A stretch of 14,628 bases of DNA from Olsenella uli (GTDB lineage: Bacteria; Actinomycetota; Coriobacteriia; Coriobacteriales; Atopobiaceae). Below, in pieces: positions 1,635 through 2,981 of the stretch. The notes beneath the pieces were generated by a model, which was given only the letters and a program-made list of their open reading frames with translations, searched no databases and was not told the DNA's origin. A program made the translations under genes and the position numbers. The stretch is from NCBI RefSeq assembly GCF_901212655.1, contig NZ_CAAKON010000012.1:1-14628 (forward strand), in the 5' to 3' direction. The number at the start of each line of letters is the position of its first letter. Positions within the stretch are counted from its first letter, which is position 1.

Positions 1635-2981
1635 ATGACCAACGAGCAGAACATCGACTTCGTACTGCGCTCCGTCGAGGAGCGCGACATCCGCTTCGTG
1701 CGCCTGTGGTTCACGGACGTGCTCGGCAACCTGAAGTCCTTCGCCATCTCGCCCGAGGACCTCGAAGAGGCCTTTGAGGAGGGCATCGGCTTCGACGGCT
1801 CGGCGGTCGATGGCTTTGCCACCCTCGAGGAGTCCGACATGCTCGCCTTCCCGGACGCAAGCACCTACCAGGTGCTTCCGTGGCGTCCGAGCGAGGCCGG
1901 CGTGGCCCGCATCTTCTGCGACATCAAGACGCCGTACCGCGAGTCGTTCGTGGGAGACCCGCGCGCCTGCCTGCGCCGCGTGTTCCACGAGGCCGACAAG
2001 GCTGGCTACGTGCTTAACGTGAGCCCGGAGATGGAGTTCTTCTACTTCAAGGACGACACCACCGTGTCCTCCGGCTCCGCCATCCCCGAGCCGCTCGACA
2101 ACGCCGGCTATTTCGACCTCACCCCGCAGGACTCCGCGCGCGACCTGCGTCGCGACATGACGCTCGCGCTCGAGCAGATGTCCATTCCGGTGGAGTACTC
2201 CTATCATGCGATGGCACCCTCCCAAAACGGCGTGTCGCTCCGTTATGCCGAGGCCGTGACCTGCGCGGACAACATCATGACCTCGCGCCTCGTTATCAAG
2301 CAGACGGCGGTTGCCCACGGCATGTTCGCCTCGTTCATGCCCAAGCCCCTCTCCGGCGTGGCTGGGTCTGCGCTCTTCCTCTGCCAGTCGCTGTTCGACC
2401 ACGACGGCAACAACCTGTTCTGGGCTCAGGGCGAGGGTTCGGTGCACCACCTCTCCGAGGTGGCCCAGCGCTACATAGCCGGCCTGCTCAAGTACGCCCC
2501 CGAGTTCACGCTCGTCACCAACCCCACGGTGAACTCCTACAAGCGCCTCGTGCCCAACGGCGAGGTTCCGTGCTTTGCCACCTGGGGCTCCAAGAACCGC
2601 TCGGCCTTCGTGCGCGTTCCCACCTACAAGCCCGGCAAGCAGCTGAGCCGTCGCATCGAGCTGCGCAGCCCGGACCCCACGTGCAACCCCTACCTCACCA
2701 TGGCCGTGACGCTCGCCGCGGGCATGCGTGGCATCCAGGAGGGGCTGGAGCTTCCCGCGGAGTCCAGCCTGCCGGTGGAGCGCCTTGCCGAGACGGGCGC
2801 GGCCCGTCTCCCGCGCGACCTCGGCCAGGCCGTGGAGGCCTTCGAGGGCAGTGAACTCATGCGCGAGGTTCTCGGCGACCACATCTTCGAGTACCTGCTG
2901 CGCGAGAAGCGCGCGGAGTGGGCCGGGTACTCCCAGACGGTCACGGACTGGGAGCTCCGTCACTACTACGGCGGTTTTTAG
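1635..2981 (+). CDS. Glutamine synthetase type I homologue, metal-ligand deficient
   Basis: The 448-residue protein spans the whole GS-I fold: N-terminal beta-grasp (about 5-95) and catalytic domain (about 105-448). Retained signatures are GFDGSAVDGF (52-61, with latch Asp D54), E132 and E134, the NSYKRLVP loop with R304 and flap E310, NRS with R322, R327, and RIELRSPDP with E342 and R344. The usual HHEVAPGQHE segment instead reads YHAMAPSQNG (190-199), so two metal-binding Glu are A192 and G199. The usual NGSGMH reads AGSALF (243-248), replacing the metal-binding His with F248 and a glutamate-binding Asn with A243. Ordinary ammonia-dependent glutamine synthesis is therefore doubtful. A regulatory or sensor pseudoenzyme, or a changed chemistry, is possible. 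The start at ATG 1635 is chosen by GAGGTAG at 1624-1630 and by family alignment. An amino acid importer follows. Confidence 0.85.
   Translation: MTNEQNIDFVLRSVEERDIRFVRLWFTDVLGNLKSFAISPEDLEEAFEEGIGFDGSAVDGFATLEESDMLAFPDASTYQVLPWRPSEAGVARIFCDIKTPYRESFVGDPRACLRRVFHEADKAGYVLNVSPEMEFFYFKDDTTVSSGSAIPEPLDNAGYFDLTPQDSARDLRRDMTLALEQMSIPVEYSYHAMAPSQNGVSLRYAEAVTCADNIMTSRLVIKQTAVAHGMFASFMPKPLSGVAGSALFLCQSLFDHDGNNLFWAQGEGSVHHLSEVAQRYIAGLLKYAPEFTLVTNPTVNSYKRLVPNGEVPCFATWGSKNRSAFVRVPTYKPGKQLSRRIELRSPDPTCNPYLTMAVTLAAGMRGIQEGLELPAESSLPVERLAETGAARLPRDLGQAVEAFEGSELMREVLGDHIFEYLLREKRAEWAGYSQTVTDWELRHYYGGF

What the first reader, a model, noticed from the sequence alone, without database searches (positions are those of the whole stretch)
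2190..2390. Glutamine synthetase homologue missing three metal ligands
The sequence shows YHAMAPSQNG where GS-I enzymes have HHEVAPGQHE, and AGSALF where they have NGSGMH. Two n1-site Glu become A192 and G199, the n2-site His becomes F248, and a glutamate-binding Asn becomes A243. E132, E134, E342, R304, R322, R327, R344, D54 and flap E310 are kept, so the fold and much of the substrate pocket are under selection. It is not a decaying gene: no stops or frameshifts are present. It may be a ligand-sensing pseudoenzyme, a partner of a true GS, or an enzyme with altered chemistry.
Basis: partly seen in the sequence, partly recalled or inferred. Interest (0 to 1): 0.75.

Follow-up and report, generated by a model that had tools for sequence, protein, structure and literature searches.

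The report
Glutamine synthetase turned probable nitrogen sensor
A gut-type bacterium's glutamine synthetase, like its relatives in Collinsella and kin, has lost key residues that hold its catalytic metals, yet it is kept intact in genomes that also carry a nitrogen-type gene regulator, so it is probably a sensor rather than an enzyme.

Summary
The gene at 1635-2981 (+) encodes a full-length GS-I fold in which two n1 Glu are Ala192 and Gly199, the n2 His is Phe248, and a further Asn is Ala243. This is a fixed trait: on a tree of 151 GS, the 76 that lack all three ligands form one exclusive branch. Of 85 distinct such sequences (window included) 65 also lack the n2 Glu132, while D54, H191, Q197, R304, R322, R327, R340 and E342 never vary. 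Selection is purifying. Parolsenella catena and Collinsella aerofaciens have it. All 84 such genomes listed also carry a GSIII.

Of 262 genomes with a close GS, 258 have it; of 35 others, 4 do; all 84 pseudo genomes do. Intact sister GS genes often sit beside it. Best reading: a GS-derived ligand sensor for a GlnR-like regulator. Contact and ligand are inferred, not shown.

The parts
1635..2981 (+). GS-I-like pseudoenzyme, 448 aa
   Evidence: ORF and translation, Pfam, PDB sequence match, AlphaFold model mean pLDDT 89.9, Foldseek top 8tfk TM 0.93
2028..2036 (+). E132 (n2 ligand position) and E134 (n1 ligand position), kept in the window; E132 lost in 65 of 85 pseudo sequences, E134 kept in 79
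2208..2210 (+). A192, replaces first n1 Glu
2229..2231 (+). G199, replaces second n1 Glu
2361..2363 (+). A243, at the Asn column (N264 of Salmonella)
2376..2378 (+). F248, replaces n2 His
2544..2666 (+). stretch holding R304, R322, R327, R340, E342 (85 of 85) and R344 (84 of 85); flap E310 kept in 64 of 85
3095..3931 (+). family 3 amino-acid ABC substrate-binding protein
   Evidence: PF00497
4208..5530 (+). amino-acid ABC permease with a secreted-looking N-terminal region (frame open from 3941; ATG at 4208 chosen by eye)
   Evidence: PF00528; weak PF10989 just under its cut-off in the N-terminal part
5541..6359 (+). amino-acid ABC ATPase, GlnQ-like (ATG at 5541 chosen by eye)
   Evidence: PF00005; NCBIfam best match GlnQ, below its cut-off
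6538..7212 (+). orphan OmpR-family, GlnR-like transcription regulator; proposed partner of the pseudo-GS
   Evidence: PF00486 only, no receiver domain match; phmmer best 8hig 104.9 and 8hih 102.8 bits, then 8hml 89, others 69 bits or less; titles naming GlnR; linkage; co-occurrence

Best explanation
The protein is a GS-I fold that has lost catalysis and survives as a receptor. Its pocket still has the Arg residues that hold the substrate carboxylate and the phosphate, but no longer the full set that holds the two catalytic metals. I propose that it binds glutamine, glutamate or a nucleotide without chemistry, and that the bound or unbound ring controls the orphan GlnR-like regulator encoded in the same region, which in turn controls nitrogen genes, perhaps including the amino-acid ABC transporter between them. 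Glutamine is made by a separate GSIII. SHOWN: ligand loss, one branch, purifying selection, GSIII co-presence, linkage to and co-occurrence with the regulator. READ FROM ALIGNMENT BY EYE: the regulator's receiver lacks a phosphorylation pocket. INFERRED: catalytic death, the ligand, physical contact with the regulator, the regulated genes.
For: One exclusive branch of 76 rows, SH-aLRT 100, one change. Invariant D54, H191, Q197, R304, R322, R327, R340, E342 in 85. dN/dS 0.01-0.26 in 11 pseudo pairs. GSIII in 84 of 84 pseudo genomes; metal-ligand motifs visible by eye in the two GSIII proteins read. Regulator directly downstream in 19 and beyond an ABC ATPase gene in 39 of 65 pseudo loci with at least 3 kb downstream or a regulator seen; directly downstream in 27 of 37 such intact loci over 50% identical. 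Adjacent also in records titled Acidimicrobiales or Acidimicrobiia (L007, L011, L039). Co-occurrence 258 of 262 versus 4 of 35, and 84 of 84 pseudo genomes. Regulator receiver: no Lys at the switch columns in 60 pseudo-linked regulators; the Asp column is Glu in 14 and Asp in 5 of 27 sister regulators. Nearest solved relatives are GlnR, whose signal and sensor a 2023 review calls unknown (PMC10704036, passages). Precedent: feedback-inhibited GS activates the unrelated MerR-type GlnR in low-GC Gram-positives (PMC9249791, passages).
Against: No contact or binding data. The low-GC mechanism does not carry over in detail: its Arg62 is Thr63 here (R in 4 of 85), and the regulator ends with its DNA-binding domain, without the C-tail of MerR-type GlnR. 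In 39 of the 58 pseudo loci with the regulator seen downstream, a transporter lies between. In 7 pseudo loci no regulator was seen downstream; positions, L165, L167 and L178 have it 4-5 kb and L227 and L226 9-10 kb downstream, but L247 has it upstream and L241 on another contig. On a wider tree adjacency (transporter-separated loci counted as not adjacent) changes at least 8 times. Co-occurrence cut-offs were set after seeing the lists and are not corrected for kinship; a group of intact GS (L180, L182, L185, L186) has no regulator within 7 kb though their genomes have one. Fold search does not single out GlnR: TM only 0.40, other OmpR proteins score alike. No GlnR-box excess in the window.
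Confidence: 0.55

Rival explanations
1. An enzyme with altered chemistry: the clade descends from GlnA2-like gamma-glutamyl-amine ligases and still catalyses a reaction with one metal or none.
For: Pocket Arg residues and E342 are invariant. Regulator-linked sister GS with intact metal sites have Pro at the Asn column in 12 of 26 rows, as S. coelicolor GlnA2 does (PMC8998196 passages). One pseudo row has Asp at 192.
Against: Both n1 Glu and the n2 His are replaced, and E132 is Lys or Arg in 57 of 85. No newly fixed acidic residue. GlnA2 is reported to keep its metal sites.
Confidence: 0.17
2. A structural or inhibitory partner of the cell's true glutamine synthetase (a heteromer, as pseudoenzymes often form).
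For: The fold is intact. A GSIII is present in all 84 pseudo genomes listed.
Against: One GS-I match per pseudo genome in 84 of 84, so no active GS-I to pair with; GSIII is a distant, about 700-aa protein, so ring mixing is unlikely (inference). The gene goes with a regulator.
Confidence: 0.08
3. It regulates the adjacent amino-acid ABC transporter or another target, and its linkage to the GlnR-like gene is only shared gene order.
For: A transporter lies between the two genes in 39 of 58 pseudo loci with a downstream regulator.
Against: In 19 pseudo loci and 27 intact loci the regulator is directly next, without the transporter between; 258 of 262 genomes with the GS have the regulator.
Confidence: 0.1
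4. A gene on its way out, retained by chance.
For: The ligand columns vary within the class, flap E310 is lost in 21 of 85, and one genome (G004) shows the gene split between two frames.
Against: No inner stop in the pseudo rows listed; dN/dS 0.01-0.26; 81 columns at least 99% fixed in the class.
Confidence: 0.02

Closest known systems
GlnA2 of actinomycetes (S. coelicolor gamma-glutamylpolyamine synthetase; PMC8998196, passages seen)
   Same: GS-I type; the Asn264 column is replaced (Pro in GlnA2; P42/S22/A12 among 85 pseudo rows).
   Different: GlnA2 is reported with conserved metal sites and activity. I held no named GlnA2 sequence; that glnA2 lies beside glnE is recalled. One phylum-wide relative with Pro at this column (L296) does have a GlnE gene downstream; the window gene goes with a GlnR-like regulator instead.
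Feedback-inhibited GS with MerR-type GlnR or TnrA of Bacillus and kin (PMC9249791, passages seen)
   Same: GS encoded with a nitrogen regulator; there the GS is shown to be the sensor.
   Different: There the GS is catalytically active and uses Arg62, and the regulator is MerR-type with a C-tail. Here metal ligands and Arg62 are gone and the regulator is OmpR-type.
Actinobacterial GlnR (OmpR family)
   Same: The regulator's nearest solved relatives by sequence are GlnR (8hig, 8hih, 8hml), and its receiver too looks non-phosphorylatable.
   Different: GlnR is described as lacking a known sensor. Here a GS gene is linked to it.
Lengsin, vertebrate lens pseudo-GS
   Same: GS-I fold reported as not catalytically active (PMC2667176, passages).
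   Different: A lens protein of animals. PDB entry 2j9i, lengsin by recall, matches only at E 1.7e-7, so an independent loss is likely (inference).

Membership tests
Type I glutamine synthetase (glutamate-ammonia ligase) | N-terminal beta-grasp plus catalytic domain, GS-I fold | tested here: met
   Pfam PF03951 and PF00120; Foldseek TM 0.93 to 8tfk
Type I glutamine synthetase (glutamate-ammonia ligase) | Curated NCBIfam cut-off for GlnA (429.15 bits) | tested here: not met
   405.5 bits
Type I glutamine synthetase (glutamate-ammonia ligase) | Three n1 and three n2 metal ligands (assignment recalled) | tested here: not met
   n1 keeps 1 of 3 (E134); n2 keeps 2 of 3 (E132, E342) in the window
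Type I glutamine synthetase (glutamate-ammonia ligase) | Glutamine synthesis | not testable with these tools
   needs purified protein
GS-I alpha subtype | No extra stretch of about 25 residues as in GS-I beta | tested here: met
   448 aa, aligned end to end with the four best solved chains without a long insert
FBI-GS / MerR-type GlnR switch | MerR-type GlnR beside the GS gene | tested here: not met
   No MerR-type domain among the nine window proteins scanned; the linked regulator is OmpR-type
FBI-GS / MerR-type GlnR switch | Arg62 of the D50 loop | tested here: not met
   Thr63 in the window; R in 4 of 85; column found by recall of the B. subtilis sequence
Actinobacterial GlnR (for the regulator) | OmpR-type DNA-binding domain closest to GlnR | tested here: met
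   Among solved structures by sequence; names
Actinobacterial GlnR (for the regulator) | Receiver without a functional phosphorylation pocket | tested here: inconclusive
   No receiver-domain Pfam match; columns assigned by eye; sisters keep one acidic residue (D in 19 of 27)
Actinobacterial GlnR (for the regulator) | Binds GlnR boxes upstream of nitrogen genes | tested here: inconclusive
   15 loose matches versus 22.6 expected in the window; genome not held
GlnA2 gamma-glutamylpolyamine synthetase | Intact metal sites with a changed ammonium-site Asn | tested here: not met
   Asn changed, but metal sites lost

The most novel reading that the evidence does not exclude
In several actinobacterial lineages GS-I is the missing nitrogen receptor of phosphorylation-independent GlnR-like OmpR regulators. 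In Collinsella, Parolsenella, Olsenella and kin this receptor has become a dedicated, catalytically dead, metal-poor glutamine or nucleotide sensor, with catalysis handed over to GSIII.
Probability: 0.35. Interest if true: 0.87.

Novelty: new variant of a known kind. Interest (0 to 1): 0.72.

Why it matters
How actinobacterial GlnR senses nitrogen is described as unknown in a 2023 review (passages). A GS gene that goes with a GlnR-like regulator in 258 of 262 genomes with a close GS, and that has lost metal ligands in a large branch, is a direct candidate for the sensor and a natural experiment: sensing without catalysis. The branch includes Collinsella aerofaciens, where sources name it 'glutamine synthetase family protein' (NCBI) or 'glutamine synthetase' (JGI), so models of gut metabolism that take it for an enzyme may be wrong. 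Ten full-text searches listed no paper whose title or abstract opening describes this pairing or a bacterial pseudo-GS; some lists were cut (20 of 22 shown, 8 of 32), and most subscription papers are not held. GS-like proteins without GS activity (GlnA2-4) are known, but as other ligases (PMC9397018, passages).

Tried and rejected
Alternative ligands from shifted positions: no newly fixed acidic residue, one His (H272) outside the motifs. Riboswitch or other Rfam RNA in the window: none at gathering cut-offs. GlnR-box scan of the window: no excess. PII loss as the reason for a substitute sensor: PII in 78 of 100 genomes of the order; of the 24 pseudo genomes in that sample 7 had no hit (G008, G046, G051, G054, G061, G070, G086), 17 had one, so it is not a rule. 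Asn loss as a mark of regulator linkage: among intact GS 23 of 27 linked versus 10 of 32 unlinked rows lack the Asn, but in the phylum-wide rows it is 9 of 14 versus 13 of 33, so I do not lean on it. A KPGK insertion before E342 is shared with intact actinobacterial GS. Whole genome of the window: not held.

How counts were made: the GS x regulator table was typed by hand from the listings (close GS: E <= 1e-100; regulator: E <= 1e-40, both chosen after seeing the lists; 13 unlisted genomes placed by elimination), tested and recounted. In some searches and 65 rows under 400 aligned residues, rows at or under 42% identity and the two mixed rows (L054, L215) were left out. Of the wider tree only 19 pseudo rows were used. 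Receiver columns were assigned by eye; the L196 regulator there contains a stop in the frame read. L078's longest frame was a wrong one and was not used.

Full report
WHAT IS THERE. The frame 1635-2981 (+) encodes 448 aa with both GS domains. Among solved chains it is closest by sequence to M. mazei GS and then low-GC Gram-positive GS-I enzymes. Its AlphaFold model (mean pLDDT 89.9) overlays M. mazei GS with TM 0.93. By the usual assignment (recalled) n1 is E134/E192/E199 and n2 is E132/H248/E342; the window keeps E134, E132 and E342 only. NCBIfam's GlnA model scores it below its own cut-off, 405.5 against 429.15.

HOW WIDESPREAD. All 121 proteins inspected from the first protein search (window query included) show the same kind of state; the names given there are Parolsenella catena. 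A genome scan gave records of Thermophilibacter, Kribbibacterium, Olsenella and Atopobium or Atopobiaceae, and a later search names Collinsella aerofaciens for a second branch. In the order, 274 of 297 genomes have a GS hit at E <= 1e-30. Of 151 GS rows on a tree, sorted by state, the 76 that lack all three ligands form one branch, support 100, one change; 19 representatives do so on a wider tree. Two mixed rows lie elsewhere on the first tree. I drew sequences mainly from the best matches plus 50 weaker genomes, so 85 is not a census.

WHAT IS KEPT. In the 85 distinct pseudo sequences D54, H191, Q197, R304, R322, R327, R340 and E342 are invariant and R344 is kept in 84; E134 in 79; flap E310 in 64; but E132 in only 20, being Lys or Arg in 57. 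Per PMC9249791 (passages) the homologue of R304 contacts the substrate carboxylate, those of R322, R340 and R344 and the lost His contact the transferred phosphate; I mapped that paper's P. polymyxa numbering through the 7tdp alignment. So the anion-holding shell is kept and the metal shell is broken. dN/dS is 0.01-0.26 in 11 pseudo pairs and 0.04-0.19 in 5 intact pairs (simple counting method).

WHO MAKES GLUTAMINE. 288 of 297 genomes of the order match the GSIII N-terminal family. None of the 9 misses is among the 84 genomes listed as bearing the pseudo state; three of 33 listed intact genomes are (G025, G029, G150). Each of the 84 has one GS-I match. Two GSIII proteins read (L076, L079) show the E, E, N and H motifs by eye.

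THE NEIGHBOUR. The gene at 6538-7212 is an OmpR-family regulator with only the DNA-binding Pfam domain. Its best solved relatives by sequence are 8hig and 8hih (105 and 103 bits), then 8hml (89), then others from 69 bits down; their titles name GlnR of S. erythraea and M. tuberculosis. By fold 8hih is the top hit, but the model is moderate (pLDDT 78, pTM 0.51), TM is 0.40 and ordinary OmpR proteins score alike. In 60 pseudo-linked regulators the Asp column is kept, the acidic partners are replaced but for one Glu in one column of one row, and no Lys stands at the two switch columns; in 27 sister regulators the Asp column is Glu in 14 and Asp in 5, with one acidic partner kept in most (columns by eye). 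No histidine kinase domain was found among the nine window proteins scanned.

LINKAGE. Among 166 distinct GS rows: pseudo 85, of which 19 have the regulator directly downstream, 39 farther downstream with the ABC ATPase gene between, 7 none seen with at least 3 kb, 20 too short; intact over 50% identical 42, of which 27 adjacent (gaps -9 to 216), 1 at 868, 9 none, 5 short; intact at or under 50% 37, of which 1 adjacent, 1 far, 26 none, 9 short; mixed 2, of which 1 adjacent, 1 short. Of the 7 pseudo loci without one, positions put it 4-5 kb downstream for three (L165, L167, L178), 9-10 kb downstream for two (L226, L227), upstream for L247 and on another contig for L241. In a phylum-wide sample 14 of 47 new rows with enough downstream DNA are adjacent, five of them with the Asn and all metal ligands. 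Genome-wide, 258 of 262 genomes with a close GS have the regulator, 4 of 35 others do, and all 84 pseudo genomes do (not kinship-corrected).

INTERPRETATION. A GS gene beside a nitrogen regulator recalls the low-GC system in which feedback-inhibited GS is the sensor of MerR-type GlnR (PMC9249791, passages). The regulator here is of a different family, one whose sensor is called unknown in actinomycetes (PMC10704036, passages). The simplest account is that the GS-regulator pair existed while the GS still had its metal sites, as in sister lineages, and that in one Coriobacteriales branch catalysis was dropped and sensing kept. The closest regulator-linked relatives resemble GlnA2 in the Asn column (PMC8998196, passages), so the lost activity may have been amine glutamylation rather than glutamine synthesis. 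Any physical evidence of binding is missing.

VERDICT. Pseudoenzyme: likely (about 0.85, my estimate). Sensor of the GlnR-like regulator: 0.55. Novelty: a new variant of GS-based nitrogen sensing.

Noticed in passing
window 4208-5530: The ABC permease carries a secreted-looking N-terminal region of about 200 aa with a weak DUF2808 match (under its cut-off) fused to the membrane part; it struck me as unusual for this transporter family.
   Followed up: no
window 992-1216 (+): Small FeoB-associated Cys-rich membrane protein (PF12669) upstream of the GS gene.
   Followed up: partly
window 13173-14444 (-): DUF3825 protein without any NCBIfam match.
   Followed up: no
L207, L209, L211, L214, L215: GS outside the pseudo branch with scattered further changes (E132 to K/A/T, E342 to D or V, second n1 Glu to Gln); possible independent, partial decay of catalysis.
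   Followed up: partly
G004:C2:117844-118852 (locus L004): In this genome the GS-I match is split between two frames near its C-terminus; assembly error or real break not told.
   Followed up: no
L293, L299, L300, L301, L312, L296: Actinobacterial GS with Trp, Tyr or Pro at the Asn column and a same-strand frame open through the 2 kb downstream, identified as GlnE in L296 only: perhaps a second conserved GS pairing. In L295, L313 and L326 the longest frame is on the other strand.
   Followed up: partly
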